From Conexibacter woesei Iso977N (GTDB taxonomy: Bacteria; Actinomycetota; Thermoleophilia; Solirubrobacterales; Solirubrobacteraceae): a DNA stretch of 64,000 bases. Positions 21,307 through 35,456 of the stretch are shown here, piece after piece. Where the stretch lies: contig NZ_AUKG01000001.1 in NCBI RefSeq assembly GCF_000424625.1, forward strand, positions 372,001 to 436,000, in the 5' to 3' direction. Each line of letters starts with the position of its first letter. Within the stretch, counting starts at the first letter, position 1. Under the pieces are notes generated by a model. The model was not told where the DNA came from. It worked only from the letters and a program-made list of their open reading frames with translations, and did no database searches. A program made the translations under genes and the position numbers.

Positions 21307-23073
21307 TCACCGCGCGGCGACCGGGACCGAGGCGCTCGACCCAAGGACCCTGCCCTGCCGGTCGAGCGCACGCACGACCACGCGGTCGGCATCGCCCGTC
21401 AGCACCAGCCCGGTCTCGAAGCCCGTGCGCGTGGCGGCTGCCACCGGCGCGGTCCCGCCGTCGGCCAGGACCTGCCAGCCCGCCACCTCGGTCGCGCCGT
21501 TCCAGGACGCCGTCACCTGCACCGCGCCGGTCGTCGCGTCGTGGTGCGCCTCGACGTCCGGCCTGGTCGTCGGCCGCGCGTGCCACGCCGCACGCAGCGT
21601 CCGGTAGCTGCCGTCGCCGTCGGGCAGCGACGCGTCGAACACGCGCCGGCCGCCGGGCGTGAACTCCGAGAACGGCCCGGCCGCGCCGAAGCCGACGAAC
21701 AGGTTGCCGCTGCCGAGCTCCTGCACGCTGCCCTCGCTCTGGGCGCTGGTGTCCTCCGCGCGCGTGACCGACGCCACCACCTTCGCGGTCTTGTGCTTCA
21801 TGTCGAGTTGCAGCACAAGCCCGCGCGACGCGCCCTTGCGCGGCGGCCCGGCCTCGTCGTCGAACAGGCTGACGCGGCCGCCCGCCAGCATCCGCGCGTC
21901 GTGCTGCAGCCAGAAGCGCGCGCCCGGGCCCATCCGGAACGTGCTCCGGCGCCCGCCGAGGCGCCACGCGATCCGGCCGCTGCGCGCGTCGACCGCCCAG
22001 ATCGCCGACGCGTCGCGGGCGGAGACCAGCAGCCGCCGCCCGCCGTCGATCGGCTGGACCGAGTTGATGTGGTAGACGTCGTTGGCCGCCGAGACCGCGG
22101 GCGAGGCGTAGGACTCGCTCAGCGGGACGTGGCCGAGCGCATGCCACTCCCACACGACCAGCCCGGTCGCGACGTCGATGCGCTGGATGATCGAGTCGAG
22201 CACCGGCCTGCCGCCGACGAGCACCGGCGAGTACACGGTGACGAGCGCGTCGCCGTCGCCGGTCAGCCGCAGCTCGTGGATGTCCATCCTGTAGCCGTTG
22301 CCCGCCCGGATCCTGGCGATCGTCTTGTAGGACTCGTCGGCGATGATCCCCTCGCCGAGCCCGAAGGCCTGGACGGTCACCGGGCCCTGCCACCACGTCA
22401 GCACGCGCCTGCCGCGGTAGGTCTGGACGGCGAGGTTCGCGGCGACGTCAGGCGCGGCGAGCGGCCTGAACCACACCAACTTGCCGTGCGGGTCGACGAT
22501 CATCGGCCCGCCCGGGCCGACCGGCGCGATCGACACGGTGTTCTTGCTGTCGGGGTGGATCACCGGCGACGGCAGCGGCGTCATCAGCGTCATCGCCGAC
22601 GAGCTCGACCGGTCCTGGGCGACCGTGATCCGCGGCGCCAGGAGGTCCGGCCGCGTGGCGAAGTGCTCCAACTTGCCCGGCTGCATGCTGGGCAGGTTGA
22701 GGACCGGCGGGATCGGCGCGAGCGTCGCGACCGTGAACGACGACCTCAGCGCACGCACCGCGCTGCCTCGCAGCCGCACGGTCACCGCCACCCGCTCCCC
22801 CGCCGCGAACGGCCTGGCCGGGACGAACGACGCCCCGCGCCCGCCCGAGTAGTCCTTCAACTTCCCGGAGTGCGCACCGCTCCTCGCGCCGACCGCGCGG
22901 ACCGCCGCGATCCTCGACGGCGCCACGCCGAGGACGCTGATCTGCGTCGCCGGGTTCGCGTCCGGCGTGCCGTCGAGCGGCGAGACCGCGACCGTCGCGT
23001 GCACGGCCGGCGCCACCGCGAGCAGCGCGGCGACGGCGACCCCCAGCGGTGCGGATGAGCGGGACAGCAGCAT
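21307..23073 (-). CDS. Secreted arylsulfotransferase (ASST)-family protein
   Basis: The 588-residue protein has a signal peptide (MLLSRSSAPLGVAVAALLAV, cleavage near VHA-TVA) and an N-terminal Ig-like region. A central domain of about 330 residues has propeller-type blocks typical of the ASST family: MIVDPHGKLVWFRPL, MDIHELRLTGDGDALVTVY, VVWEWHALGHVPLSESY and ARFWLQHDARMLAGGRVSLFDDE. The histidines in MDIHEL and WLQHDA match positions conserved in the family. The C-terminal 80 residues form an Ig-like module. Family knowledge suggests sulfuryl transfer between phenols in classical members; many actinobacterial relatives are uncharacterised. Confidence 0.78.
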   Translation of the reverse strand: MLLSRSSAPLGVAVAALLAVAPAVHATVAVSPLDGTPDANPATQISVLGVAPSRIAAVRAVGARSGAHSGKLKDYSGGRGASFVPARPFAAGERVAVTVRLRGSAVRALRSSFTVATLAPIPPVLNLPSMQPGKLEHFATRPDLLAPRITVAQDRSSSSAMTLMTPLPSPVIHPDSKNTVSIAPVGPGGPMIVDPHGKLVWFRPLAAPDVAANLAVQTYRGRRVLTWWQGPVTVQAFGLGEGIIADESYKTIARIRAGNGYRMDIHELRLTGDGDALVTVYSPVLVGGRPVLDSIIQRIDVATGLVVWEWHALGHVPLSESYASPAVSAANDVYHINSVQPIDGGRRLLVSARDASAIWAVDARSGRIAWRLGGRRSTFRMGPGARFWLQHDARMLAGGRVSLFDDEAGPPRKGASRGLVLQLDMKHKTAKVVASVTRAEDTSAQSEGSVQELGSGNLFVGFGAAGPFSEFTPGGRRVFDASLPDGDGSYRTLRAAWHARPTTRPDVEAHHDATTGAVQVTASWNGATEVAGWQVLADGGTAPVAAATRTGFETGLVLTGDADRVVVRALDRQGRVLGSSASVPVAAR

Positions 23074-23121
23074 CGGCCGTGCCGATTAGAACACGTCGCC
23101 GGAACCCATGCCGCGTCTGCG

Positions 23122-24003
23122 ATGCTCGGCGACATGTCGGGAGCCGATGATCTGCAGGCGGTCGCCGAGCTGGAGCGGGTCGACCTCGCGCTGCCGGAGG
23201 GGTTGGAGATCCGGTGGCTCGGCGTCTCCGGCTACCGGCTGACGTACGAGGGCGTCTCGCTGTTCATCGACCCCTACGTGTCGCGCGTGCCGCTGCGGTC
23301 GCTGCTACTGAGGCGGCTGGCGCTGCAGGACGCCGAGCTGGTCGCGCGCTACGGCGGCGCGCCCGGTCCGGTGGCGGGCGTCCTGGTCGGGCACACGCAC
23401 TTCGACCACGCCGTCGACGCGCCCGCGCTGGCGCGGATGCACCAGACCAAGGCCTACGGGTCGGCGTCGCTGGTCAGGTTGATGGCGTTGCACCGCCTCG
23501 AGCAGCAGGCGGTCGAGGTCGCAACGCGCCGCCCGTACGAGCTGGGCCCGTTCGCGGTGACGTTCATCCCCAGCCGCCACTCGAAGCTGCTGTTCGGCCG
23601 CAAGGTGCCGATGGACGGGCCGCTGACCTGCGACCACCTCGACGGCCTCGCGCCCGGCGCCTACCGCTGCGGCGCGGTCTACGGGATCCGGATCGAGGTC
23701 GCGGGCCTGTCGCTCTACCACCAGGGCAGCGCCGACCTGATCGACGCCGAGCTCCCCGACCAGCAGGTCGACGTCTTCCTCGCCGGCGTCGCCGGCCGCC
23801 AGGTCACGCCCCGTTACTGGGAGCGCGTCCTGCCCAAGCTCGACCCGCGCTACGTCGTCCCGACGCACTACGACAACTTCTTCTCGCCGCTGGGCCGCGC
23901 GCAGGACATGGTCCGCAAGGTCGACCTCGCCGACGTCCCGGACGAGATCCGCCGCGTCTCCCGCGACGCCCAGGTCGCCGCGCTGCCGCGGATCGACGCC
24001 TGA
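23122..24003 (+). CDS. MBL-fold hydrolase, UlaG/lactonase-like
   Basis: The protein of about 293 residues has the motif GHTHFDHAVDAPALA (HxHxDH), then FIPSRHSKLLFGR, LYHQGSADLID and VVPTHYDNFF, which give the remaining metal-binding histidines and aspartate. The spacing resembles UlaG-like L-ascorbate-6-phosphate lactonases and related Zn/Mn phosphodiesterase-like proteins. The strand order is complete. An in-frame ATG at 23134 is an alternative start; neither has a clear ribosome binding site. It is divergent from the ASST gene. Confidence 0.75.
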   Translation: MLGDMSGADDLQAVAELERVDLALPEGLEIRWLGVSGYRLTYEGVSLFIDPYVSRVPLRSLLLRRLALQDAELVARYGGAPGPVAGVLVGHTHFDHAVDAPALARMHQTKAYGSASLVRLMALHRLEQQAVEVATRRPYELGPFAVTFIPSRHSKLLFGRKVPMDGPLTCDHLDGLAPGAYRCGAVYGIRIEVAGLSLYHQGSADLIDAELPDQQVDVFLAGVAGRQVTPRYWERVLPKLDPRYVVPTHYDNFFSPLGRAQDMVRKVDLADVPDEIRRVSRDAQVAALPRIDA

Positions 24004-24034
24004 AACGGCACGGCCGCCGGGTATAGGCCGATGC

Positions 24035-24865
24035 ATGGCCTCTCCCAAGACGTGGTTCATCACCGGCACCTCGCGCGGCTTCGGGCGTGAGTGGGCGGTC
24101 GCGGCGCTGGAGCGCGGCGACAGGGTCGCCGCGACCGCCCGCGACGCCGCCTCGCTCGACGACCTCGTGGAGAAGTACGGCGACGACAACGTGCATGCGC
24201 AAGCGCTCGACGTGACCGATCGCTCGGCGTGCTTCAGCGCCGTCGCCGCCGCGCACGAGAAGTTCGGCCGCCTCGACGTCGTCGTCAACAACGCGGGCTA
24301 CGGGCACTTCGGCATGATCGAGGAGATCACCGAGGCCGAGGCCCGCGACCAGATGGAGACCAACCTCTTCGGGGCGCTCTGGGTCACGCAGGCGGCGCTG
24401 CCGTTCCTGCGCGAGCAGGGCTCCGGGCACCTCCTGCAGGTGTCGTCGATCGGCGGGATCAGCGCGTTCGTCGAGGTCGGGATGTACCACGCGTCGAAGT
24501 GGGCGCTGGAGGGCTTCAGCCAGTCGCTGGCCCAGGAGGTCAAGGACTTCGGGATCCACGTGACGCTGATCGAGCCCGGCGGCTTCTCGACCGACTGGGG
24601 CGGCTCGTCGGCGCGCCACTCCGAGCGGCTGGACGCCTACGACGCCGTCCACCAGGCCTCCGACGAGCGCCGCGCCTCGATGAGGGGCAAGGCGGGCGAC
24701 CCGACCGCCTCGGCCGCGGCGGTCCTGAAGATCGTCGACGCCGACGAGCCGCCGCTGCGCTGCTTCTTCGGCTCGGCCCCGCTGAGGATCGCCGAGGCCG
24801 ACTACGCGTCGCGGCTGGAGACGTGGCGCGCGTGGCAGCCGGTGGCCGAGCTGGCCCAGGGGTGA
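24035..24865 (+). CDS. Short-chain dehydrogenase/reductase (classical SDR)
   Basis: The 276-residue protein shows the cofactor motif TGTSRGFG (10-17), a following Arg typical of NADP preference, VVNNAGYG, the catalytic serine region LLQVSSIGGIS and the active pair Tyr151/Lys155 in YHASK. The C-terminal LIEPGGFSTDWG is also a family element. It would oxidise or reduce a hydroxyl or carbonyl on an unknown substrate. The sequence is typical of the SDR family often labelled oxidoreductase with a TGTSxGxG start. It stands between an MBL-fold hydrolase and a CapA-type protein on the same strand. Confidence 0.9.
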   Translation: MASPKTWFITGTSRGFGREWAVAALERGDRVAATARDAASLDDLVEKYGDDNVHAQALDVTDRSACFSAVAAAHEKFGRLDVVVNNAGYGHFGMIEEITEAEARDQMETNLFGALWVTQAALPFLREQGSGHLLQVSSIGGISAFVEVGMYHASKWALEGFSQSLAQEVKDFGIHVTLIEPGGFSTDWGGSSARHSERLDAYDAVHQASDERRASMRGKAGDPTASAAAVLKIVDADEPPLRCFFGSAPLRIAEADYASRLETWRAWQPVAELAQG

Positions 24866-24880
24866 TACAACCACCTCAAC

Positions 24881-26113
24881 TTGCGCAACGCTGACCGCCA
24901 GAGGCAGCTCACCACTCGCCGCCTCGCGGCCGCGCTGGCGATCGCGGTGTGCGCCGGCACGGCCGGCGCGCTGGTGGGCGCCGGCGACCATGGCGACGGC
25001 GCCGCGGATGCCGCGGTCGCCGCCGCCAGGCTGCCGCCCGGCCGGCCGCTGACGGTGATCTGGGGCGGCGACGTCACGCTCGGCTCGCGGTACGGGCTGC
25101 CGCCCGACCACGCGCGCGGCATGCTCGCGGGCGTCGCGAGCACGATGCGCGCCGCCGACCTGACGACCGTCAACCTCGAGGGCACGCTCGGCGCCGGCGG
25201 ATCGACGAAGTGCCCGGTCCCGACGCCGACGTGCTTCGCGTTCCAGGCGCCCGCGGGCAACGCCGCGGGGCTGACGCGCGCCGGGGTCGACGCGGTCAAC
25301 CTCGCAAACAACCACGCGTGGGACTTCGGCGCGACCGGCCTCGGGCAGACGATCCTGGCGCTGCGCCACGTCGGCGTCGCCTTCACCGGGCGGCCTTCTG
25401 AGATCACCTACATCTCGCTCGACAGGACGCGCGTCGCGTTGTTGGGGTTCTCGGCCTACCCGTGGACGTCGCCGATCCGCGACCTCGTCGCGGCCCACCG
25501 CCTCGTCGCGCAGGCCGCGGCGAACGCCAACGTCGTGATCGTCTTCATGCACGGCGGCGCCGAGGGCGCCGGGCAGACCCGCGTGCCGTTCGGCGAGGAG
25601 CAGGCGTTCGGCGAGCTGCGCGGCAACCTGCGCGCGTTCGCGCACACCGCCGTCGACGCGGGCGCCGACCTCGTCCTCGGCTCCGGCCCGCACGTCCTGC
25701 GCGGGATCGAGATCTACAACAGGCGCACGATCGCCTACTCCCTCGGCAACCTCGCGGGCTACAGGAACTTCGCCCGCGGCGGCGTCCTCAGCCTCAGCGG
25801 CCTGCTGCGCGTCGACCTCAACGCCACCGGCGCGCTGACCGGCGGCCGCTTCCTGCCGCTCAAGCTGACCGGCCCGGGCCTGCCGCACGTCGACCCCACC
25901 CACGCGTCCGCCCACCTCGTCGCGCGCCTCTCCAGGCTCGACTTCGGCTCCCGCGCGCTGCGCCTCTCACCGTCGGGCCAGATCACCAACCCGCCCGCGC
26001 AGAAGCCCAAGCCGCCGAGGCCCAAGCCGCAGCCCTCGACGCCGGCCCCGCCGACGACCTCCACCCCGCCCGCCACTACCGCTCCACCGAGCACCACCGC
26101 ACCGCCCGCCTAG
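24881..26113 (+). CDS. Exported CapA-type (poly-gamma-glutamate capsule) metallophosphatase-fold protein
   Basis: The protein of about 410 residues begins at TTG 24881 with a basic N-terminus and a hydrophobic segment (LAAALAIAVCAGTAGALVG), so it is exported or anchored. The body carries WGGDVTLGSRYG, NLEGTLG, NLANNHAWDFGATGL, VIVFMHGGAEG and VLGSGPHVLRGIEIYN, the conserved Asp, Asn and His blocks of the PGA_cap family with a calcineurin-like fold. The last 45 residues are Pro/Thr/Lys-rich (AQKPKPPRPKPQPSTP and threonine-proline repeats), typical of a wall-spanning linker. Many family members lack a capsule operon, and none is seen here. No strong ribosome binding site precedes the TTG. Confidence 0.8.
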   Translation: MRNADRQRQLTTRRLAAALAIAVCAGTAGALVGAGDHGDGAADAAVAAARLPPGRPLTVIWGGDVTLGSRYGLPPDHARGMLAGVASTMRAADLTTVNLEGTLGAGGSTKCPVPTPTCFAFQAPAGNAAGLTRAGVDAVNLANNHAWDFGATGLGQTILALRHVGVAFTGRPSEITYISLDRTRVALLGFSAYPWTSPIRDLVAAHRLVAQAAANANVVIVFMHGGAEGAGQTRVPFGEEQAFGELRGNLRAFAHTAVDAGADLVLGSGPHVLRGIEIYNRRTIAYSLGNLAGYRNFARGGVLSLSGLLRVDLNATGALTGGRFLPLKLTGPGLPHVDPTHASAHLVARLSRLDFGSRALRLSPSGQITNPPAQKPKPPRPKPQPSTPAPPTTSTPPATTAPPSTTAPPA

Positions 26114-26168
26114 CAACGGATCAGGAATGGAGAAGCGCGGCCGCGGGGCCGGACGTAGGTTGCTTCCC

Positions 26169-26807
26169 ATGCCCACCGCAACGCAGACCGCGATCGCATC
26201 CGTCGTCCTCGAAGCCGCCGATCCCGGCGCCGCCGAGGCGTTCTACGAGGAGGCGTTCGGCCTCGGCGACCGGGTGCAGGTGCGCGCCGCCGGCGCCGAG
26301 CCGAGCACCGGCTTCCGCGCGTTCACGCTGTCGCTGGTCGTCGCGCAGCCGAGCGTCGTCGACTCCTACATCAACTCCGCGAAGGCCGCCGGCGCGACGG
26401 TGATCAAGGACCCCAAGAAGTCGATGTGGGGCTACGGCGGCGTCGTCCAGGCGCCGGACGGCACACTCTGGAAGGTCGCGACGTCGGCCAAGAAGGACAA
26501 GGGCCCGGCGGTCCGCGCGATCGACGAGCTCGTGCTCCTGCTCGGCGCCGACGACGTCAAGGAGAGCAAGCGCTTCTACGAGCAGCAGGGCCTGACCGTC
26601 GACAGGTCCTTTGGCAGCAAGTACGTGCAGTTCGCCAACAACGACCCGCACGCGATCAAGCTCGCGCTCTACGGCCGCGGCGCGCTGGCCAAGGACGCGG
26701 GCGTCGCGCCCGAGGGCAGCGGCGCCCATCGCATCGCGATCGTCACCGGCGACACCGCGCCGTTCACCGACCCGGACGGCTTCGCCTGGGAGCACCCCAC
26801 GCGATAG
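26169..26807 (+). CDS. Two-module VOC (glyoxalase-like) protein
   Basis: The 212-residue protein starts MPTATQTAIASVVLEAADPG and has two VOC-type modules. The first, about residues 1-110, contains FYEEAFGLGDRVQVRAAG and GYGGVVQAPDGTLWKVAT. The second is AIDELVLLLGADDVKESKRFYEQQGLTVDRSFGSKYVQFANNDPHAI with a closing TDPDGFAWE. Some metal ligands of the classical enzyme are not obvious, so it may be a binding protein. The start at 26169 is chosen because the 14 extra upstream residues do not fit the family. Confidence 0.8.
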   Translation: MPTATQTAIASVVLEAADPGAAEAFYEEAFGLGDRVQVRAAGAEPSTGFRAFTLSLVVAQPSVVDSYINSAKAAGATVIKDPKKSMWGYGGVVQAPDGTLWKVATSAKKDKGPAVRAIDELVLLLGADDVKESKRFYEQQGLTVDRSFGSKYVQFANNDPHAIKLALYGRGALAKDAGVAPEGSGAHRIAIVTGDTAPFTDPDGFAWEHPTR

Positions 26808-26846
26808 CGGTGGCCCGCCTTGCGCTGAGCAACCGGTCGCCCTACG

Positions 26847-26874
26847 CTTACGTACATGCGTGCACGTATGTCAG
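26847..26874 (+). promoter_or_regulatory. TetR-type operator over the start of the DUF2867-tetR operon
   Basis: An imperfect 28-bp palindrome, CTTACGTACATGCG followed by its near-complement, has 10 of 14 pairs matched and is centred between 26860 and 26861. It contains both candidate ATG codons of the DUF2867 gene (26856 and 26868). A tetR gene is the second gene of the operon, so autorepression through this site is likely. Confidence 0.6.
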
Positions 26875-27446
26875 AGAGCGGCCGGTTGCCCGACAGCGCG
26901 CATTCGGCCTACCCCTGGGCGATCCACGCGGTCGCCCCGGACTTCGCGCTGGAGGACGTCTGGGCCCTGCCGGTGACCGCGGGGCCCGACGACTTCCCGC
27001 AGGTCGTCGACCAGGTCTGCGCGCTCGACGCCGAGCGCGGTGGGCCGCCGGCCGTCCGGGCGCTGTGGGCGATCCGCTGGAAGCTCGGCGCGCTGCTGGG
27101 CTGGGACGGCGACGACGCCGGGACCGGCGGGCGCGTCGCGACGCTGCGCGACCGCGTCCCGGACGACCTGCGCGACACCGCCGCCGCGCGCTCCCGCGCG
27201 TTCGCGCACCTGCCGTTCGCGCCGCTCTACGAGACCCACGACGAGTTCGCCGCCGAGGTCGCGAACGCCACGATGCACGGCGTGATGCACCTCGGCTGGG
27301 TCCCGGCGGGCGACGGCACGTACCGCGCGCAGATGGCGGTGCTCGTCAAGCCCAACGGCGTCAAGGGCAAGGCGTACATGTTGGCGATCCGCCCGTTCCG
27401 GCGCCTGCTCGTCTACCCCGCGCTGATGAAGCGCGTCGCGGGGTGA
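26856..27446 (+). CDS. DUF2867-type protein
   Basis: The 196-residue protein starts MRARMSESG and resembles the DUF2867 family: PDFALEDVWALPVTAGPDDFPQVVDQVC, then ALWAIRWKLGALLGWDGDD, and a C-terminal strand set ending in KAYMLAIRPFRRLLVYPALM. The family is small, alpha/beta and without known activity; some members sit beside NAD-epimerase domains. The gene overlaps the downstream tetR by four bases (GTGA), and an operator covers the start, so its expression is probably de-repressed by a ligand. An in-frame ATG at 26868 is an alternative start that would give a leaderless-type mRNA. Confidence 0.72.
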   Translation: MRARMSESGRLPDSAHSAYPWAIHAVAPDFALEDVWALPVTAGPDDFPQVVDQVCALDAERGGPPAVRALWAIRWKLGALLGWDGDDAGTGGRVATLRDRVPDDLRDTAAARSRAFAHLPFAPLYETHDEFAAEVANATMHGVMHLGWVPAGDGTYRAQMAVLVKPNGVKGKAYMLAIRPFRRLLVYPALMKRVAG

Positions 27447-28024
27447 GCACGCAGGCCCAGCGCCGCGCCGCCTCGCGCGCCGCGCTGCTGGAGGCGACCG
27501 CGCGCGGCATCTCGCGCGGCGGCTACGGCGCGCTGAAGCTCGACGACGTCGCGACCGCGGCGGGCTACACGCGCGGCGCGCTCTACCACCAGTTCAAGGA
27601 CAAGGACGCGCTCGTCCTCGCGACCGTCGCCTGGGTCCGCGAGACCTGGGAGGCCGAGGTCGGCACGGTCCTGCAAGATGATGGACTCGATCCGGTCCAG
27701 GCCCTGACCGAGCTCGCCCGCCGCCACGCGGTCTACTGCCGCCGCGACGTCGCCGGCGTGATGATCGTCCTGCGCGTCGAGACCGCCGGCGCGCCGATCG
27801 CCGCCGCCGTCCAGGACCACGTCGCCGACCTCGTCCAGCGCGTCCGCCGCCTGATCCTCGCGGGCCGCCGCACCGGCGCGATCGGCCCCGGCCCCTCCGC
27901 GACCGTCCTCGCCGGCTCCCTGCTCGCCGCGATCGAAGCCGCGACCCTCGCTCTCCGCGGCCGCACCGACACCGCCGACGAGGAGGTCGCCCAACGCATC
28001 GTCCGCGGCCTGCTGCTCGGCTAG
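27443..28024 (+). CDS. TetR-family regulator, likely autorepressor
   Basis: The 193-residue protein has a TetR HTH (LKLDDVATAAGYTRGALYHQFKDKDALV, about residues 32-59), then an all-helical C-terminal ligand domain. It starts at GTG overlapping the stop of the DUF2867 gene, and the palindrome at 26847-26874 is its probable operator. The last five residues and stop (GLLLG and TAG) lie inside the left copy of the 35-bp direct repeat (28007-28041), so the insertion left the gene intact. Before the insertion its TAG would have overlapped the stop of the luxR gene in a CTAG. Confidence 0.9.
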   Translation: MSTQAQRRAASRAALLEATARGISRGGYGALKLDDVATAAGYTRGALYHQFKDKDALVLATVAWVRETWEAEVGTVLQDDGLDPVQALTELARRHAVYCRRDVAGVMIVLRVETAGAPIAAAVQDHVADLVQRVRRLILAGRRTGAIGPGPSATVLAGSLLAAIEAATLALRGRTDTADEEVAQRIVRGLLLG

Positions 28025-28041
28025 GCGCAGGGCAGCGCGTC
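28007..28041. repeat. 35-bp direct repeat, left copy
   Basis: Bases 28007-28041 are identical to 29452-29486; the match ends by mismatch on both sides. The copy contains the last five codons and stop of the tetR gene and, read on the minus strand, the last codons of the luxR gene. Confidence 0.95.
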
Positions 28042-29451
28042 CTTGTGGATCACTCGTCGATGAGCGTCCGTGCGTGCGGTGGAAAGGCCACTTTCAGACC
28101 GAAGCGATCGCACAGCGCGAGCCAAAGCTCGTCAGGCTCCCGTTCTATGTAGATACGCGCTTCGACCGCCTCGCCGAAGCGCCTCTCAGCGCCGAGCTGA
28201 TAGCGGAGCACTTGCGCGAACGCTGCACGGATCTGCGCTTCGCCGGTATCGATGTCCGCAGACTTCACCTCGCAGATCACGAGGGTGCCTGCTTGCGAAC
28301 GCCATGCGATATCGAACCTCGGATCGCGATGGGGTGAGAGCGGAACAAGCCCAGCCGCACGCGCGAGATCAGCGAGTTCGTTCTGAAGCCGCGCATGTGA
28401 TCGCCACGCCGCCCGCACGAGTTCCGGGTCGGGTGCGGCGAGAGCAGCTGGGTTCGGATCTGCCTCCTCGTCGGCAGGCCGATATGGCACTCCGACCTCC
28501 TCCACCGGAGGGTTGCGGTCGTCATTTGACAATCCCTCACCAGCTTGACCTTGGACCGCCAGGATCGGCTCGCCGCTCTCCGGATCCGGCTCAACCCGCT
28601 CGACTCCCGGGAGGTCCGTTCGGGGTAGCGAGATGTTATGGATGATCTCCCACGCGGAAAGCCGAGCATCCTGCCACCCGTCTATGAACTTCCGGGCCGA
28701 AGCCGACGACGGGACGTCAGAGCGACCGGCGGACCACGCGTCATACACCGCGACCGTCGGTGGGCCACCCAAATCTCGCCAGCACTCGACGACGGCTGCG
28801 ACCACCGCTTGACGCGTCAACGCGCTTCGCGGCCCGAGTCGCGGCCCGACCTCCAACCCCGCGTTCTTCAATGCGGCCCGCCACGACCCCCAGCGGAGTG
28901 CCATCGTCTGGTGGGTAGGCGCTGAGCGGCCATCATCAAATTTCTGTCCCTGCGCCCAGGTGTTATACGCGTCGTGAGCCAACGGCTCGTGCAATTGCTT
29001 TGCGGCCTCACGCAGGAGCCTGATGAGATCCAGGTCGCTATACCGCGGCTGATGGGCCGTCGGCCGTTGTCTGAGCACCTTTGTGTCAGGCAGACGCCCA
29101 TCTACGACCGCTTCGACGTCTGCTCTCCGGAGCCCCAATCGTTCGGCGACAAGCGCATCGTCGCGTTCCTCAAGGAACGCCTGCTCGATCTCGTCGCCGC
29201 GCGTCTCGGACAGCCAGGCCACTCGCCGCGCTTGAGCATCGCGGTTGTTCAGACCCATGTCTTCGAGGAGCTGGCGTGCTCGTTCTCGCGTGATGCCGAA
29301 GGCATGCCCCATGTCTTCAAGCGTCCGGCCCTCGGCGTGAAGCCGTCTGAGAGTCGTTTCGCGGGAACTGTCGGTATCTGCTCCAAAATCATCAGAAGCC
29401 ATCAGTGATGACCTTCTCAGATGCCGAGGCCGTCGTGCCGACCCCGGAGCG
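28042..29451 (-). mobile_element. Putative nuclease-encoding mobile element, 1,410 bp
   Basis: This block lies between the two 35-bp direct repeats. It is clearly lower in GC than its flanks: 35 of 60 bases in 28261-28320 against 51 of 60 in 27841-27900, by hand count. Its only convincing gene is a nuclease-like protein filling most of it (28050-29402). Removal of the block with one repeat recreates an intact tail-to-tail junction of tetR and luxR. There is no transposase, integrase or terminal inverted repeat. The most economical reading is a small selfish element inserted at the junction. Whether the repeat is a target duplication or an attachment core is not resolved. Confidence 0.75.
28050..29402 (-). 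CDS. HTH, homing-endonuclease-repeat and PD-(D/E)xK nuclease-like protein
   Basis: The 450-residue protein has a sigma-70 region 4-like helix-turn-helix (residues 24-51, RTLEDMGHAFGITRERARQL). Two repeats, 120-183 and 194-253, resemble homing-endonuclease-associated repeats: YSDLDLIRLLREAAKQLHEP ending in WGSWRAALKNAGL, and LTRQAVVAAVVECWRDLGGP ending in a Trp-containing block. An acidic linker (260-325) leads to a nuclease-like core with Asp364 (RFDIAW), Glu378-Val-Lys380 (LVICEVKSA) and Gln397 (FAQVLRYQL), the order expected for PD-(D/E)xK enzymes. Cleavage is inferred, not shown. Codon use and GC differ from neighbours. An AAGG precedes the ATG by nine bases. It follows luxR on the same strand, so read-through is possible. 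Confidence 0.75.
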   Translation of the reverse strand: MASDDFGADTDSSRETTLRRLHAEGRTLEDMGHAFGITRERARQLLEDMGLNNRDAQARRVAWLSETRGDEIEQAFLEERDDALVAERLGLRRADVEAVVDGRLPDTKVLRQRPTAHQPRYSDLDLIRLLREAAKQLHEPLAHDAYNTWAQGQKFDDGRSAPTHQTMALRWGSWRAALKNAGLEVGPRLGPRSALTRQAVVAAVVECWRDLGGPPTVAVYDAWSAGRSDVPSSASARKFIDGWQDARLSAWEIIHNISLPRTDLPGVERVEPDPESGEPILAVQGQAGEGLSNDDRNPPVEEVGVPYRPADEEADPNPAALAAPDPELVRAAWRSHARLQNELADLARAAGLVPLSPHRDPRFDIAWRSQAGTLVICEVKSADIDTGEAQIRAAFAQVLRYQLGAERRFGEAVEARIYIEREPDELWLALCDRFGLKVAFPPHARTLIDE

Positions 29452-29486
29452 GGCCTGCTGCTCGGCTAGGCGCAGGGCAGCGCGTC
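29452..29486. repeat. 35-bp direct repeat, right copy
   Basis: This copy, identical to 28007-28041, carries the last seven codons of the luxR gene including its TAG (29466-29468). It restores the luxR 3' end in the way the left copy restores the tetR 3' end. Confidence 0.95.
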
Positions 29487-32189
29487 GCGCAGTTCGTGGC
29501 GGGTCGAGACGTCGAGCTTGCGGTAGACCTTGTGCAGGTGGTACTCGACGGTGCGCGGGCTGATGTAGAGCTGCGCGCCGATCTCCGGGTTCGTGTGGCC
29601 CGCCCGCGCCAGGCGCGCGACCTCCGCCTCCTGCGGCGTCAGGACCGGACGCCCGCCGTCAGCCGGGGCCGCCACGACCGCCTCGCCCGTCGCCAGCAGC
29701 TCGCGCCGCGCGCGCTCGGCGAACGCGGCCGCGCCGAAGCGCGTGAAGTCGCTGTGCGCGGCGCGCAGCTGGTCGCGCGCGTCGCCGCGCCGCCCGGCCG
29801 CCCGCAGCCACTCGCCGTAGCCGAGCCGCGCGCGGGCCAGGTCCAGCGCCGCGCGGCTGCGCTCCAGCAGCGCGATCGACTCAAGGTACTTGTCTTCGTC
29901 GCCCGTCACGAGCGCCGCGCAGCGCGCCTCGACGCCCAGCGCCCACGGCGTCCCGGCCGCCTGCGTCCGCTCGCGCAGCTCGCCCAGCGCGGCGCCCGCC
30001 TCCTCCGGCCGGTCGCAGCGCACGGCCGCCTCGACCAGCTCGGCCAGCGCCCAGCCGTAGGCGATCACGTCCTCGTACTCGCCGACCTCACGCGCGGACA
30101 GCAGCGCCTCGTCGTGGCGCCCCGCGCCGTTGTGCATGAGCGCGAGCATCCACGTCGCCACGCCGAGCGCCGACCCCTCGCCGCGCTCGTTCGCGCTCGC
30201 GAACCCGAACCGGAACATCCCCGCGGCCGCCGCGTCGTCGCCCTGCGCCGCGACGACCATGAACGCCCCGTACTTCAGCGGCGGCAGGCCGGTCGCGGCG
30301 GTCAGCGCGTCGACCTCGTCGGCCAGCGCCGCGCCCGCCGCCAGTGCCCCGGAGTGCACGCGGTAGACCGCCAGGTAGTTGGCCATCGACGGCAGCAGGT
30401 GCAGCGCGCCGGTCTCGCGCGCGACGCGGACGCCGCGCGTCGCGAGGTCGTGCCACAGCTCGTCGTCCCACAGGTCCTGCGCCATCCGGCACGCGAGCCA
30501 CAGCCAGCGGCGCTCGGCGTCGGTGCCGCCGTCGGGGTCGAACGCGCGCAGCGCGGCCCGGATCGGCTCGGCGGCCGCCGCGTAGCCGTCGGTGAAGCGC
30601 ACGACCAACCCGTTCAACAACGCGTCGGCCGCGCCCAGCTCCGGAGCGACCCCATCAACAACGGCGCGCGCGATCTCCGCCTCGTCCGGGCCGTCGCCGA
30701 GCCGCCCCGCGTACGTCGCGGCGGCCAGGGCCTCCAGGTAGGTCGCGCGCGCCATCCCGGCGTCGAGCGCGTCCAGCCGCTGCGCCGCGGCGAGCAGGAG
30801 CGGAGCCGCCTCGCGCCCGCGCCAGCGCGCGAACGCGATCTGCGCGCCGAGCCGCTCGACCCGCGCGCGGCGCAGGTCGTCGAGGGCGACACCGTGCTCG
30901 GCGACCGCCAGGAGGTCCGCCGCCGCCGCGGCGTCCGCGACGTCGAGCTTGGCCTGCGCGGCGTCCAGCGCCCGGTCCACCCGCACGACGCCCGCCGGCG
31001 TCAGCTCCGCCGCGCGCTGCAGGAACGCGGCCGCCGCCGCCAGCCCGCCGCGCCGCCGCGCCCGCGCCGCCGAGGACGCCAGCTCCGCCGCGACCGCCGC
31101 GTCGGGGCCGGTCGCCGCGCCCGCGAGGTGCCAGGCGCGCCGGTCCGGGTCCAGCGCCGCATCGGTCGCCGCGGCCAGCGCGGCGTGGACCTCGCGGCGC
31201 GCCCCCGCGCCCGCGGCGCGGTAGACCGCCGAGCGGACCAGCGGATGGGTGAAGCGCACGCGCGCGCCGAGGTCGATCAGGTCCGCCGTCTCGGCCGGCC
31301 ACGCCGCCTCGGTCCCGACGCCGAGCGCGTCGGCCGCGCGCCACAGCAGCGCGGTGTCGCCGACCGGCTCGGCGGCGGCGATCAGCAGCAGCGTCTGGGT
31401 CGCGGCGGGCAGCGCGGTCACGCGCGCGTGGAACGTCTGCTCGATCCGGCCGGCCAGCGGGCGCGCGTCCGGAAGGCCGAAGCCGCCGGCCAGCTCGGCG
31501 GGCGCCAGGCCGCGCGGCAGCTCCAGCAGCGCGAGCGGGTTGCCGCGCGTCTCGGCGAGGATCCTGTCGCGCACGGGCGCGTCGACCGGGCCATGGAGGG
31601 TGGCCTGCAGGAGCGCCAGCGCGTCGGCGTCCGAGAGCCCTTCGACCCGCAGCTCGGGCAGCCCCGCGAGCTCGGCGCCGCCCTGGTCGCGGACCGCGAA
31701 GACCATCCCGATCCGCTCGGCCAGCAGCCGCCGCGCGACGAACGCCAGCACCTGCGCCGAGGCGGAGTCCAGCCACTGCGCGTCGTCGAACAGGCACACC
31801 AGCGGCGCCGCCTCGGCGGCCTCGGCGAGCAGGCTCAGCGTGGCGAGCGCGACCAGGAAGCGGTTCGGCGTCTCGCCCTGCTGGAGGCCGAACGCGACGC
31901 GCAGCGCGTCCTGCTGCGGGGCGGGCAGCGCGCGCAGGCCGTCGTCGAGCAGGCCGCCGCAGAGCTGGTGCAGGCCGGCGAACGCCAGCTCCATCTCGCC
32001 CTGGACGCCAACGCAGCGCGCGACCCGGACGCCGCCCGCCGTCGCCTGCTCCGCGGCGTGCTCGAGCAGGACGGTCTTGCCGATCCCGGCCTCGCCGCGC
32101 AGGACCAGGACCTCGCTCTGGCCGCCGCGCACGTGCGCCAGCAGCGCGTCGAGCGCGGCGCACTCGTCCCGGCGACCGCGCAGCTTCAT
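29466..32189 (-). CDS. Large LuxR-family ATPase regulator (LAL/MalT-like)
   Basis: The 907-residue protein has an N-terminal AAA/STAND module with Walker A GEAGIGKTVLL (near residue 32) and Walker B-like VCLFDDAQWLDSASA. A central region of about 500 residues is Ala-rich and helical, consistent with TPR-like repeats. The C-terminal 60 residues form a LuxR DNA-binding domain: LTPQEAEVARLARAGHTNPEIGAQLYISPRTVEYHLHKVYRKL. Proteins of this class integrate ATP binding and a ligand signal to activate transcription. I start it at ATG 32189 (MKLRGRRDE); a GTG at 32243 would add 18 residues. The stop codon lies in the right 35-bp repeat. Confidence 0.9.
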   Translation of the reverse strand: MKLRGRRDECAALDALLAHVRGGQSEVLVLRGEAGIGKTVLLEHAAEQATAGGVRVARCVGVQGEMELAFAGLHQLCGGLLDDGLRALPAPQQDALRVAFGLQQGETPNRFLVALATLSLLAEAAEAAPLVCLFDDAQWLDSASAQVLAFVARRLLAERIGMVFAVRDQGGAELAGLPELRVEGLSDADALALLQATLHGPVDAPVRDRILAETRGNPLALLELPRGLAPAELAGGFGLPDARPLAGRIEQTFHARVTALPAATQTLLLIAAAEPVGDTALLWRAADALGVGTEAAWPAETADLIDLGARVRFTHPLVRSAVYRAAGAGARREVHAALAAATDAALDPDRRAWHLAGAATGPDAAVAAELASSAARARRRGGLAAAAAFLQRAAELTPAGVVRVDRALDAAQAKLDVADAAAAADLLAVAEHGVALDDLRRARVERLGAQIAFARWRGREAAPLLLAAAQRLDALDAGMARATYLEALAAATYAGRLGDGPDEAEIARAVVDGVAPELGAADALLNGLVVRFTDGYAAAAEPIRAALRAFDPDGGTDAERRWLWLACRMAQDLWDDELWHDLATRGVRVARETGALHLLPSMANYLAVYRVHSGALAAGAALADEVDALTAATGLPPLKYGAFMVVAAQGDDAAAAGMFRFGFASANERGEGSALGVATWMLALMHNGAGRHDEALLSAREVGEYEDVIAYGWALAELVEAAVRCDRPEEAGAALGELRERTQAAGTPWALGVEARCAALVTGDEDKYLESIALLERSRAALDLARARLGYGEWLRAAGRRGDARDQLRAAHSDFTRFGAAAFAERARRELLATGEAVVAAPADGGRPVLTPQEAEVARLARAGHTNPEIGAQLYISPRTVEYHLHKVYRKLDVSTRHELRDALPCA

Positions 32190-32272
32190 CGGCGCAGTAT
32201 CGCGTGTCCGCGGATCCTCGACCTTCGGGTAATAGGTAGCCACAGGTGTGTCCGAACGGTTAGAGTCTGCAC

Positions 32273-33097
32273 GTGCGCATTCGAGTGGTCGGGTTCATCG
32301 TCGCGATCGTCGCGCTGGCTCTGTCGGCTGCAAGCGCGGGCGCCGCGACCGTCAGCGGGTCGCTGCAGGTCACCGCGACCGACGCCACGACCGTGACGTT
32401 CAACGTCACCGCCCAGCGCACGTGCGCGCCCGACGAGCAGTGCGACTACTACGCCGACCTCGAGAACTTCTTCGGCGACGGCGACTGCCCGACGACCTAC
32501 CCCGCCGATCCGTTCAACGCGTGGAACGGCGACGTCCAGAACACCGGTCCGACGACCGAGGTCGGGATGATCACGCCACGCGCCTGGACCGGCGCGGCCG
32601 ACCCGGGGCCGGAGCGGCTGTGCCTCTACATCTTCGCCGACAGCGTGTACTACTACGTCGGCGGCACGGTCATCAACCGGCCGGCCGGGGCGCCGCCCGC
32701 CGGTGCGAGGACCATCCCGCCCGGCGGGATCACGCTGCCCGGCGGCGGGAGGACCGGCGGCGGCTCGACCACGACGCCCGGCGGTGGGACCACCGGCGGC
32801 GCGTCGACCAGGACGCCCCCGTCGTCCAGGACCGTCGCCGTTAGGACGGTCGCGCTGACGAAGGCGGCGGCCTCCGCGAAGGCCGCGCTCAAGAAGTCCT
32901 ACGGCAAGAAGTTCACGCAGGGCAAGCGCTACAGGGCGAGCTGCAAGCGGGTCGGGACGTCCAGGATCCACGTGCGCTGCACGGTCTCCTGGCAGCGCGC
33001 CGGGACCTGGAGGGGCACGGTCGACGTGACCGGCGCGGTCAGGGGCGGCAGGCAGGTCCTGGTCACCAGGGTGAGGGTCCGCAAGCCGAAGGGGTGA
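32273..33097 (+). CDS. Secreted protein with Gly/Thr linker and basic C-terminal domain
   Basis: The 274-residue protein begins at GTG 32273 with a signal peptide (MRIRVVGFIVAIVALALSAA, cleavage near AGA-ATV). The first mature domain (about 25-140) holds four cysteines (RTCAPDEQCDYY, GDCPTTY, RLCLY), suggesting two disulfides. A Gly/Thr/Pro linker follows. The last 90 residues are strongly basic and may bind wall polymers or nucleic acid; they contain SCKRVGTSRIHVRCTVSWQR with another cysteine pair. Arg is almost only AGG after the linker but CGN before it. The family is not known to me. It diverges from the luxR gene. Confidence 0.6.
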   Translation: MRIRVVGFIVAIVALALSAASAGAATVSGSLQVTATDATTVTFNVTAQRTCAPDEQCDYYADLENFFGDGDCPTTYPADPFNAWNGDVQNTGPTTEVGMITPRAWTGAADPGPERLCLYIFADSVYYYVGGTVINRPAGAPPAGARTIPPGGITLPGGGRTGGGSTTTPGGGTTGGASTRTPPSSRTVAVRTVALTKAAASAKAALKKSYGKKFTQGKRYRASCKRVGTSRIHVRCTVSWQRAGTWRGTVDVTGAVRGGRQVLVTRVRVRKPKG

Positions 33098-33127
33098 GCA
33101 ACCGCGCGTCCTGGGCGCGCCGCAGGG

Positions 33128-33781
33128 CTAGTCGATCCCGAGCCGGACCTGGAACTGCGCGCGCTCGGCGTGGTGCTGGAAGAGCAGGTCGGCGACCTCG
33201 TCGGGCTCGTGGTCCTCGCCCGGCGCGATCCGGCCGGCGATCGCCGTGTGGCCGACGTGGATGCCGCGGTCGCGCAGCTCGTCGTGGAGCATCCGCGCGT
33301 AGGCGACCTCCCCCGCGAACGAGATCCCGACGCCCGCGCGCAACGGGTACGGGTTGATCGCCGCGCCGCCGGTCGTGAACAAGATGGTGCCCTTGCCCGC
33401 GTCGAGCATCGCCGGCAGGACCGCGGTCGCCGCGGCAACCGAGCCCAGCACGCTGAACTCCAACGGCCCACGGACATCGTCGACCGTCGTCTCGAGGATC
33501 GGCTTCATGAACTCCCTGGCGGGCAGCGGCGAGTACTCCAGCACCTCGACCTCACCGAGCGACGCGGCGAGCGACCTGATGGCCTCGCTCAACCCCGCGC
33601 TGTCGCGGATGTCGGCCGCGGCGGCATCGACGGTGAGCCCATCCTCCCGCAGCTCCCCCGCCAACCGCTCCAACTTCTCCCGGTTGCGCGCGACCAACCC
33701 CACCGCCATCCCCTCGCGCCCGAACCGGCGCGCCACTGCCGCACCGAGGTTGGGTCCCGCACCGACGATCACGATCGACAT
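33128..33781 (-). CDS. SDR-fold protein lacking the YxxxK active site
   Basis: The 217-residue protein has the Rossmann start MSIVIVGAGPNLGAAVARRF and VGLVARNREKLERLAG, then SVLGSVAAATAVLPAML and ILFTTGGAAINPYPLRAGVG. Where classical SDRs carry Tyr-x-x-x-Lys, this one reads PLRAGVGISFAGEVAYARM, so the usual catalytic pair is absent. It may be a non-catalytic NAD(P)-binding regulator or use another residue. It sits downstream of the epimerase gene on the same strand. Its start codon lies in a 12-bp perfect hairpin (33777-33807). Confidence 0.8.
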   Translation of the reverse strand: MSIVIVGAGPNLGAAVARRFGREGMAVGLVARNREKLERLAGELREDGLTVDAAAADIRDSAGLSEAIRSLAASLGEVEVLEYSPLPAREFMKPILETTVDDVRGPLEFSVLGSVAAATAVLPAMLDAGKGTILFTTGGAAINPYPLRAGVGISFAGEVAYARMLHDELRDRGIHVGHTAIAGRIAPGEDHEPDEVADLLFQHHAERAQFQVRLGID

Positions 33782-33807
33782 GCCCCGGGCCTTCCCCGGG
33801 GCATGTC
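33777..33807 (-). promoter_or_regulatory. 12-bp perfect hairpin over the SDR start codon
   Basis: Bases 33777-33788 pair with 33796-33807 around a 7-base loop; one arm holds the ATG at 33781-33779. It lies between the upstream epimerase stop (33843) and this gene, so it could terminate the former or hide the start of the latter. Confidence 0.6.
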
Positions 33808-33842
33808 GCGCTACGCGTGCCGGCGACGCCGAGGACGACGTC

Positions 33843-34748
33843 CTAGCTCTGGAAGTAGTGCCCCGCCTCGAGGTCCTCGATCAGGCCCGGGCCGGTCGGC
33901 GTCCAGTTGTAGGTGTTGCGGGTGAGCTCCGACGACATGGGGTTGTCGAAGCCGATGAAGCCGGCCATCCAGGCGAAGTGCTCGGCGGCCTGGTCGGCGG
34001 GGATCGACTCGACCGGCAGGTCGAGGTGGCGGCCGATGACCGTCGCGATGTCCTTGATCGGGACGCCGGTGTCGTCGATCGCGTGCAGGACCGAGCCGGG
34101 CTGCGCGCTGTCGGCCGCGAGCCGGAAGACGCGGGCGGCGTCGCTCACGTGCGCGGCAGGCCAGCGGTTGGCGCCGTCGCCGACGTAGGCGGAGCGGCCG
34201 TGCTCGCGCGCGCAGCTGATGATCCACGGCACGAAGCCCTTGTCGCCGTCGCCGTGCACGGTCGGCGGGAGGCGCACGACCGAGCTGCGCACGCCGCGGT
34301 CGGCGAGCGCCAGCGCGGCGATCGCGTTGAGCGGGCGCTCGAAGCCGGGGATCTCCGGCGCCGGGTCGGACTCGACGGCGAGGCCGCCGCCGGGGTGGGT
34401 CACGCCGAGCGAGCCCGACGCGATGACCAGCGGCTTGTTGGTGTTCTCGAGGATGTCGCCGAACAGCGCGATCGCCGCGCGGTCCGTGAGGGCGGCGGCG
34501 TTGAGCTGTGAGAAGTCGTCGTGCTTGAACGCCAGGTGGATGACGCCGTCGCTCTGCTCGGCGCCGGTGCGCAGCGAGTCGAGGTCGTCGAGGTTGCCGC
34601 GCAGGACGTCGCCGCCCGCGGCCTCGACGCGGGTGGCGCCCTCGTCGGAGCGGGCGAGGCCGAGCACGGAATGGCCGCTGGCGACCAGGTCCTGGACCAG
34701 CGGGATGCCGATCCAGCCCGACGCGCCGGTGACGAAGTAACGAGCCAT
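33843..34748 (-). CDS. NAD-dependent epimerase/dehydratase-family protein
   Basis: The 301-residue protein starts MARYFVTGASGWIGIPLVQDL with the GxxGxxG cofactor motif of extended SDRs, then GDVLRGNLDDLDSLRTG and GVIHLAFKH. VRSSVVRLPPTVHGDGDKGFVPWII and DDTGVPIKDIATVIGRHLDLP follow the pattern of the atypical NmrA/epimerase-like subgroup. The catalytic YxxxK is not obvious, as in many members of that subgroup. Regulation is suggested by two operators upstream (34782-34846) shared with a divergent tetR gene. The substrate is unknown. Confidence 0.85.
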   Translation of the reverse strand: MARYFVTGASGWIGIPLVQDLVASGHSVLGLARSDEGATRVEAAGGDVLRGNLDDLDSLRTGAEQSDGVIHLAFKHDDFSQLNAAALTDRAAIALFGDILENTNKPLVIASGSLGVTHPGGGLAVESDPAPEIPGFERPLNAIAALALADRGVRSSVVRLPPTVHGDGDKGFVPWIISCAREHGRSAYVGDGANRWPAAHVSDAARVFRLAADSAQPGSVLHAIDDTGVPIKDIATVIGRHLDLPVESIPADQAAEHFAWMAGFIGFDNPMSSELTRNTYNWTPTGPGLIEDLEAGHYFQS

Positions 34749-34781
34749 GGGGAGTCTCCTCAGGGGTCAGAGGGGTATTCT

Positions 34782-34846
34782 GATGACATTCGGTGTCATC
34801 GCCGTGAAGGCAGCGTAGCACGCCTGATGGCACCCGGTGACATCAG
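34782..34846. promoter_or_regulatory. Paired inverted-repeat operators between epimerase and tetR genes
   Basis: The first dyad, GATGACA at 34782-34788 and TGTCATC at 34794-34800, has seven perfect pairs and a five-base centre. The second, at 34824-34846, pairs 10 of 11 positions (CTGATGGCACC opposite CGGTGACATCAG). Both fit one consensus, TGATG-N-CA ... CGGTG-N-CATC. They lie in the 113-base divergent gap between the epimerase gene (start 34748) and the tetR gene (start 34862), so this TetR is the probable ligand. Confidence 0.7.
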
Positions 34847-34861
34847 GGTAGACTCCCGGAC

Positions 34862-35437
34862 GTGGCCCGCTGGTTACCCGACGCACACGGCCGCCTGGGA
34901 CAGGCGGCGATGGAGCTCTTCGCCGAGCGCGGCTACGACGCCACGACCGTCGCCGACATCGCCGAGCGCGCGGGGCTGACCAAGCGCACGTTCTTCCGCC
35001 ACTTCGCCGACAAGCGCGAGGTGCTGTTCGGCGGCGGCGAGATCCTGCAGGACGCGATGACCGCCGCGATCGCCGGCGCGCCCGCCGACGCCACGCCGAT
35101 CGAGGCCGTCGCGCTGGCCCTGACCGCGGGCGCCGACCTGGTCGGCAGCGACCTCGATCACACCCGCGAGCGCCAGGCGATCATCACCGCGCACCCCGAG
35201 CTGCAGGAGCGCGAGCTGATCAAGATGGCGAGGATCGGCGCCGCGCTGGCCGCCGAGCTGGAGGCCCGCGGCACCGACGCGACGACCGCGTCGCTCGCCA
35301 GCCAGGCGGGGTTGGCGGCCTTCCGCGTCGGCTTCGAGCGCTGGGCGGCGATCCCGCCGACGCGCAGGCGCGTCCCGAAGCTCGCGAAGGTGATCGCCGA
35401 CTCGCTCGACGAGCTCCAGGCGATCGTCGCGGCCTGA
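34862..35437 (+). CDS. TetR-family regulator of the divergent epimerase gene
   Basis: The 191-residue protein begins at GTG 34862 with a classical TetR N-terminus: LGQAAMELFAERGYDATTVADIAERAGLTKRTFFRHFADKREVLF. The C-terminal domain is helical and lacks recognisable ligand residues. Divergent orientation with the epimerase gene and two near-identical operators in the gap make it the likely repressor of both itself and the epimerase. It is followed 19 bases later by the exonuclease III gene on the same strand, but a functional link is not evident. Confidence 0.9.
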   Translation: MARWLPDAHGRLGQAAMELFAERGYDATTVADIAERAGLTKRTFFRHFADKREVLFGGGEILQDAMTAAIAGAPADATPIEAVALALTAGADLVGSDLDHTRERQAIITAHPELQERELIKMARIGAALAAELEARGTDATTASLASQAGLAAFRVGFERWAAIPPTRRRVPKLAKVIADSLDELQAIVAA

Positions 35438-35456
35438 CCCCGTACCGTTGCGAGCG

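What the first reader, a model, noticed from the sequence alone, without database searches (positions are those of the whole stretch)
28007..29486. A 1.4-kb low-GC nuclease element bracketed by a perfect 35-bp direct repeat at a convergent gene junction
Seen directly: bases 28007-28041 equal 29452-29486 with mismatches immediately outside. The copies carry the last codons and stops of tetR (plus strand) and luxR (minus strand), so both genes stay intact. Deleting one copy and the 1,410 bp between them recreates a junction in which the two stop codons overlap in CTAG. The block has one good gene and is much lower in GC than its flanks. Inference: this is a recent insertion of a minimal mobile element. 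A 35-bp duplication is far longer than usual transposon target duplications, and no transposase or integrase is present, so the mobility mechanism would be unusual: an attachment-like core, a staggered cut by the encoded nuclease, or capture during end joining.
Basis: partly seen in the sequence, partly recalled or inferred. Interest (0 to 1): 0.92.

Follow-up and report, generated by a model that had tools for sequence, protein, structure and literature searches.

The report
Foreign nuclease gene in duplicated site
A single foreign DNA-cutting-enzyme gene appears to have dropped into an actinobacterial chromosome and left a 35-letter copy of the target on each side; this resembles a known but poorly understood way in which restriction-enzyme genes move.

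Summary
A perfect 35-bp direct repeat (28007-28041, 29452-29486) brackets 1,410 bp holding one gene (28050-29402, minus). Each copy carries the overlapping ends of tetR and luxR. The repeat is far beyond chance. The gene looks foreign: GC3 0.69 against 0.96-0.97 for three neighbours. Its product joins an HTH/HNR DNA-binding half to a PD-(D/E)XK half with conserved active-site residues. That nuclease half also occurs beside DNA methyltransferases in distant relatives, so it looks like a restriction-enzyme domain. No transposase, integrase, methyltransferase or terminal inverted repeat of 12 bp or more was found with it. [quoted passage not shown] Best reading: a new variant of that, a solitary nuclease gene inserted with a 35-bp target duplication, perhaps during break repair (the genome has three Ku matches). 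No empty site could be shown: none of the relatives searched has the tetR-luxR junction. Self-mobility is unproven and this may be a single event.

The parts
28007..28041 (.). left copy of the 35-bp direct repeat; holds the last 5 tetR codons, the tetR stop and a copy of the luxR end
29452..29486 (.). right copy of the 35-bp direct repeat; holds the luxR end and a copy of the tetR end
28042..29451 (.). inserted segment, 1,410 bp, 64.1% GC
28050..29402 (-). solitary nuclease gene, 450 aa (P0001); stop codon 8 bp from the left repeat, first ATG/GTG/TTG of the frame 49 bp from the right repeat
   Evidence: GC3
29265..29348 (-). HTH resembling sigma-70 region 4 (residues 19-46; below Pfam cut-off)
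   Evidence: E 8.8e-4
28851..29042 (-). HNR, homing endonuclease associated repeat PF18780 (residues 121-184)
   Evidence: E 4.7e-9, above cut-off
28653..28823 (-). second HNR-like repeat (about residues 194-250), by alignment with HTH-HNR proteins only
   Evidence: inference, modelled with low confidence
28053..28502 (-). PD-(D/E)XK nuclease domain (residues 301-450); D364, E378, K380, Q397, Y401 conserved
27443..28024 (+). tetR-type regulator, target neighbour
29466..32243 (-). large AAA/LuxR regulator, target neighbour

Best explanation
A solitary restriction-type nuclease gene, acquired from another organism, was inserted at the point where the convergent tetR and luxR genes overlap by their stops, and 35 bp of target were duplicated (shown: repeat, gene content, unusual composition; inferred: direction and recency). 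This is the pattern called 'insertion with long target duplication', known from restriction-modification genes. The most likely route (inferred) is repair of a break with a long stagger or two spaced nicks: both ends were filled in, giving two copies of the 35 bp, and a linear DNA fragment carrying the gene was joined between them, for which the genome's Ku genes make end joining plausible. The nuclease itself may have made the cut, but this is not needed. The insertion could persist because both host genes stay intact. The protein probably binds a long site through its HTH and HNR half and cuts through its PD-(D/E)XK half, which would let it live without a methyltransferase (inferred).
For: Perfect 35-bp repeat with single-gene content; foreign GC3; no nuclease within 1.5 kb of 9 of 9 tetR relatives, all 9 with DUF2867 nearby; PD-(D/E)XK fold, block means of pLDDT 80-97 over residues 301-450, best Z 11.1 to EndoMS; active-site residues invariant in the 16 rows of A4; same domain beside a C5 methyltransferase and Vsr (L031), beside a D12 methyltransferase (L048), and fused to Methylase-associated X1 (L060); three Ku matches in the genome; published pattern for R-M genes.
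Against: No empty site: none of 9 tetR relatives has luxR beside it and none of 19 fetched luxR relatives has tetR within 1.5 kb. The published duplications are of the order of 100 bp and variable; 35 bp is shorter. There is no methyltransferase, so it is not an R-M system. Distant relatives show no such repeats. Foldseek's own best match is weak (E 4.2e-3, none under 0.001). One relative, L005/L066, lacks D364 and Y401. Ku presence does not show that end joining did this.
Confidence: 0.6

Rival explanations
1. Remnant or passenger of a site-specific element: the 35 bp are attL/attR cores made by an integrase acting on gene 3' ends, and the rest of the element was lost or the integrase acts in trans.
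For: A perfect repeat covering gene 3' ends is usual for integrase cores (recalled knowledge); an HNR-tailed protein that reads like a serine recombinase exists in the class (L126; the recombinase label is my reading of the sequence).
Against: The insert is one gene filling 1,353 of 1,410 bp; no integrase in it or among 13 neighbouring predicted genes; one copy only in the genome.
Confidence: 0.17
2. Homing-type self-insertion: the protein is a free-standing homing endonuclease that cuts this junction and copies its own gene into empty alleles.
For: HNR is named for homing endonucleases; PD-(D/E)XK is one of the six known homing-endonuclease families (start of the abstract of PMC6083498 in the listing); solitary; conserved active-site residues.
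Against: Homing between alleles copies the insert by recombination and does not by itself create a 35-bp duplication (recalled knowledge); the duplicated target stays whole on both sides; no relative was seen at other sites with repeats.
Confidence: 0.13
3. Ordinary transposon-like insertion by an unlinked transposase with an unusually long target duplication.
For: Direct repeat of target sequence.
Against: No inverted repeat of 12 bp or more links the two ends of the insert (shorter ones were not sought); no transposase in it or in 13 neighbouring predicted genes; 35 bp is long for a transposon target duplication (recalled).
Confidence: 0.05
4. Not an insertion here but an old gene lost elsewhere by deletion between the repeats.
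For: Repeat-bracketed indels in Haloquadratum were mostly deletions where direction could be told (10 of 11; passage in PMC3119063).
Against: Foreign GC3 and stops that overlap as CTAG in the single-copy junction favour insertion; the gene is absent beside all 9 tetR relatives found.
Confidence: 0.05

Closest known systems
Insertion with long target duplication of restriction-modification genes (Nobusato et al. 2000; Furuta et al. 2010, both known to me only through citing passages)
   Same: Gene with a restriction-type nuclease bracketed by a long direct repeat of local sequence, no transposase
   Different: Solitary nuclease without methyltransferase; 35 bp instead of the order of 100 bp; no empty allele in hand; an actinobacterium (probably Solirubrobacteraceae, inferred from L005 of the same family being identical in protein to L066, titled so) rather than Helicobacter
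Solitary restriction endonucleases (Ershova et al. 2012, PMC3488263, passages)
   Same: Restriction-type PD-(D/E)XK gene with no methyltransferase found beside it
   Different: N-terminal half is an HTH/HNR DNA-binding module; no NCBIfam family over its cut-off (BbrUII/HgiDII only at E 0.031)
Free-standing homing endonucleases (PD-(D/E)XK type such as I-Ssp6803I, recalled)
   Same: PD-(D/E)XK nuclease plus homing-associated DNA-binding repeat, sits between genes
   Different: 35-bp duplication of the site; no evidence of cutting or homing
HTH-HNR proteins L106, L107
   Same: 37-41% identical over residues 14-259
   Different: No nuclease half in the locus, no flanking repeat over 13 bp

Membership tests
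Insertion with long target duplication (R-M genes) | insert bracketed by a long direct repeat of local target sequence | tested here: met
   35/35 identity, carries both host gene ends; shorter than the order of 100 bp given in PMC3874152
Insertion with long target duplication (R-M genes) | related genome holds the empty site with one copy | tested here: inconclusive
   no genome searched has the tetR-luxR junction
Insertion with long target duplication (R-M genes) | insert carries restriction-modification genes | tested here: inconclusive
   restriction-type nuclease domain yes; methyltransferase absent from the insert
Insertion with long target duplication (R-M genes) | no transposase or integrase in the insert | tested here: met
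   one gene of 1,353 bp in 1,410 bp
PD-(D/E)XK nucleases | fold core with D and ExK active site | tested here: met
   model residues 301-450, Z 11.1 to 5gke, 10.8 to 2vld (Foldseek itself gave no match under E 0.001); D364, E378, K380 invariant in 16 rows
Type II restriction-modification system | cognate methyltransferase beside the nuclease | tested here: not met
   none in the insert or among 13 neighbouring predicted genes, 21310-36329; rest of genome not searched for one
Homing endonuclease | HNR or other homing-associated domain with nuclease | tested here: met
   PF18780 E 4.7e-9
Homing endonuclease | cuts the empty site and spreads into it | not testable with these tools
   needs biochemistry or crosses
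DNA transposon | transposase and terminal inverted repeats | tested here: not met
   no transposase domain; no inverted repeat of 12 bp or more joining the ends
Integrase-borne element | integrase within the repeats | tested here: not met
   single gene, no recombinase domain

The most novel reading that the evidence does not exclude
The gene is a self-sufficient one-gene mobile element: its HTH/HNR half picks the site, its PD-(D/E)XK half makes two nicks or a break about 35 bp apart, and host end joining seals a copy of the gene between the filled-in ends, so that the protein alone produces long target duplications and could also promote clean excision by annealing of the repeats.
Probability: 0.12. 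Interest if true: 0.8.

Novelty: new variant of a known kind. Interest (0 to 1): 0.45.

Why it matters
Long target duplications around restriction genes have been reported since 2000 (cited in the passages), and the passages I read give no settled mechanism. A case reduced to one gene, with a perfect short duplication at a place that breaks no gene, is a very simple substrate on which to test whether the nuclease itself, or only host repair, makes the duplication. The HTH-HNR-nuclease fusion also suggests how a restriction domain could gain a long enough site to live without a methyltransferase.

Tried and rejected
Searched for an empty site through both flanks. LuxR: 40 relatives plus own genome, 19 relatives' loci fetched, none with tetR within 1.5 kb. 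TetR: 60 relatives plus own, then 232 genomes of the order, own included; 9 others match at E below 1e-35, none with luxR or the nuclease within 1.5 kb. The junction is not conserved there, so neither an empty nor a filled site was seen.

Searched for full-length relatives: own genome 1 copy; 101 genomes, own included, 9 with a match at E 1e-5; 396 of the phylum, 2 at E 1e-20, own included; 232 of the order, 12 at E 1e-8, own included; phages none; plasmids none; genome collection none by single-protein patterns, 18 loci by profile; viral contigs none by single protein, 2 by profile. Listed matches other than the own gene cover only one half. A profile of the HTH-HNR half matched 137 of 399 genomes of the class; of its loci 30 were fetched, and the 29 other than our own hold no nuclease-domain match at E 1e-3. 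One unfetched match (G622 C249, 406-aa frame) was not examined.

Flanking-repeat test: 26 relatives, longest 7-14 bp. L002 and L004 are HNR proteins; L005/L066 and L049/L058 are the same loci twice by their identical proteins, leaving about 22 distinct nuclease loci. L053 (same locus as L048) was not tested because the contig end cuts it. Five had under 600 bp on one side (L056 2 bp, L057 330, L049 414, L002 476, L008 549). The test looks 600 bp beyond the gene, so it would miss repeats around a larger R-M unit. HNR proteins gave 10-13 bp in 8 of 8 (L002 and L010 are one locus) and 8-13 bp in the 23 of 29 loci tested (six had matches too weak to place); several loci recur between the calls, and L124, L120 and L112 had very short flanks or an unclear frame. 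The 16-row alignment A4 holds our protein and 15 of the 20 loci; left out were L053, L062, L064, L066 and L068, of which L066 lacks two of the active-site residues.

Inverted matches between the insert edges and the tetR interior (27600-27612 with 28034-28046; 27654-27667 with 29434-29447) are among 21 such pairs and were set aside as chance. Extension of the repeat to the right was judged chance. Promoter scan 0 and terminator scan 1, within shuffles. Rfam none at 27000-33500. PADLOC none. PDB sequence search: 18 weak hits (E 0.016-1.1), mostly sigma-factor HTH, none for profile A2. The HNR region was modelled poorly (pLDDT mostly under 50).

Full report
What is there. The two 35-bp copies are exact and end abruptly. 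Between them lie 1,410 bp, 1,353 of them one open reading frame on the minus strand (28050-29402). The stop codon is 8 bp from the left copy and the first start codon of the frame 49 bp from the right copy. Each copy holds the end of tetR and the end of luxR, whose stops overlap in CTAG. The repeat is far beyond chance by composition (about 8e-11 pairs expected within 2 kb) and by random placements in the window (270 placements, longest 19 bp). In a 400-kb sample of the same genome, repeats of 30 bp or more occurred in 3 of 20 stretches: inside a diverged duplication of about 800 bp and as a multi-copy 31-bp motif 6.8 kb apart (L087), in a tandem array (L089), and as a pair 155 bp apart (L092). 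The gene looks foreign: GC 64.1% and GC3 0.687, against GC3 0.96-0.97 in the three neighbouring genes measured. It is single-copy.

What the protein is. Residues 19-46 resemble the HTH of sigma-70 region 4 (E 8.8e-4, below cut-off) and residues 121-184 are an HNR, the homing endonuclease associated repeat (PF18780, E 4.7e-9, above cut-off). Stand-alone HTH-HNR proteins elsewhere in the class are 37-41% identical over residues 14-259 (L106, L107). Residues 301-450 match a nuclease domain at 31-41% identity. The model of this part has block means of pLDDT 80-97 and aligns with PD-(D/E)XK proteins: EndoMS Z 11.1, Can2 10.9, 2vld 10.8, McrBC 8.4, although Foldseek itself gave no match under E 0.001 (best 4.2e-3). 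D364, E378, K380, Q397 and Y401 are invariant in the 16 rows of A4; L066, left out of A4, lacks D364 and Y401. The domain sits beside a C5 methyltransferase and a Vsr gene in L031, beside a D12 methyltransferase in L048, and is fused to Methylase-associated X1 in L060, so I take it for a restriction-enzyme domain. No relative with both halves was found among the matches examined. That the protein cuts DNA, and where, is inference.

Insertion or not. Nine tetR relatives in 231 other genomes of the order at E below 1e-35 have a DUF2867 match within 1.5 kb; none has the nuclease or luxR there. So the gene is not an old part of this tetR neighbourhood, but the junction itself is not conserved and an empty site cannot be shown. 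The closest luxR relative (66%) is in G020, which has no tetR match at the threshold. Perfect identity of the copies, including the halves that are free to drift, suggests that the event is recent; with about 34 such positions this bounds divergence only loosely (my estimate).

Mechanism. No transposase, integrase or terminal inverted repeat of 12 bp or more was found, and none of 13 neighbouring predicted genes between 21310 and 36329 matched a mobility or methyltransferase family. Restriction-modification genes are reported to insert with long and variable target duplications, of the order of 100 bp, without a known mobile element, and single component genes of some systems appear mobile (passage in PMC3874152; also PMC3031569; PMC1643837; PMC4978471). 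The present case fits that description except for its shorter duplication and its lack of a methyltransferase. The genome has three Ku matches, so capture of a fragment at a long-staggered break by end joining is possible; this step is inferred.

Against the reading. The prediction that relatives are repeatedly bracketed by local repeats was not met in any relative tested, though all are distant and the test covers only 600 bp around each gene. Repeat-bracketed indels can also arise by deletion in other strains (passage in PMC3119063). The event may be a one-off. I hold the insertion itself at about 0.9, the long-target-duplication type with a repair route at about 0.6, and self-mobility by the encoded nuclease at about 0.12.

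Literature seen. Passages only of PMC3874152, PMC3031569, PMC1643837, PMC4978471, PMC3154945, PMC4389544, PMC3488263 and PMC3119063; the start of the abstract of PMC6083498 in a listing. Nobusato 2000 and Furuta 2010 were not read. A search for the phrase 'homing endonuclease associated repeat' gave no paper.

Noticed in passing
window 32521-32718 (-): ARAGORN calls a tmRNA here, overlapping an open reading frame; Rfam finds none in 27000-33500, so it is probably a false positive.
   Followed up: partly
L126 133-2040: A 635-aa protein that reads like a serine recombinase (my reading, no family search) with HNR-like repeats at its C-terminus: HNR may serve as a DNA-binding tail on several kinds of DNA enzyme.
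   Followed up: no
L031 309-3148: A relative of the nuclease sits between a C5 methyltransferase and a Vsr gene, a likely restriction-modification system.
   Followed up: partly
window 28053-28502 (P0001 residues 301-450): Four relatives of the nuclease domain show weak, below-cut-off similarity to XisH (Pfam E 0.002-0.014), and XisH structures, one titled fdxN element excision controlling factor, align at Z about 9.
   Followed up: no
own genome C3:535366-536678 (L073, L074): Two Ku matches side by side plus a third on C1.
   Followed up: no
L087 5866-5896 and 12692-12722: A 31-bp exact repeat 6.8 kb apart whose core also occurs at 12859: a small dispersed repeat of unknown nature in the same genome.
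   Followed up: no
window 28034-28046 and 29434-29447: Both edges of the insert have 13-14-bp inverted matches inside tetR, 54 bp apart (27600-27612 and 27654-27667); likely chance, but could mark template switching.
   Followed up: no
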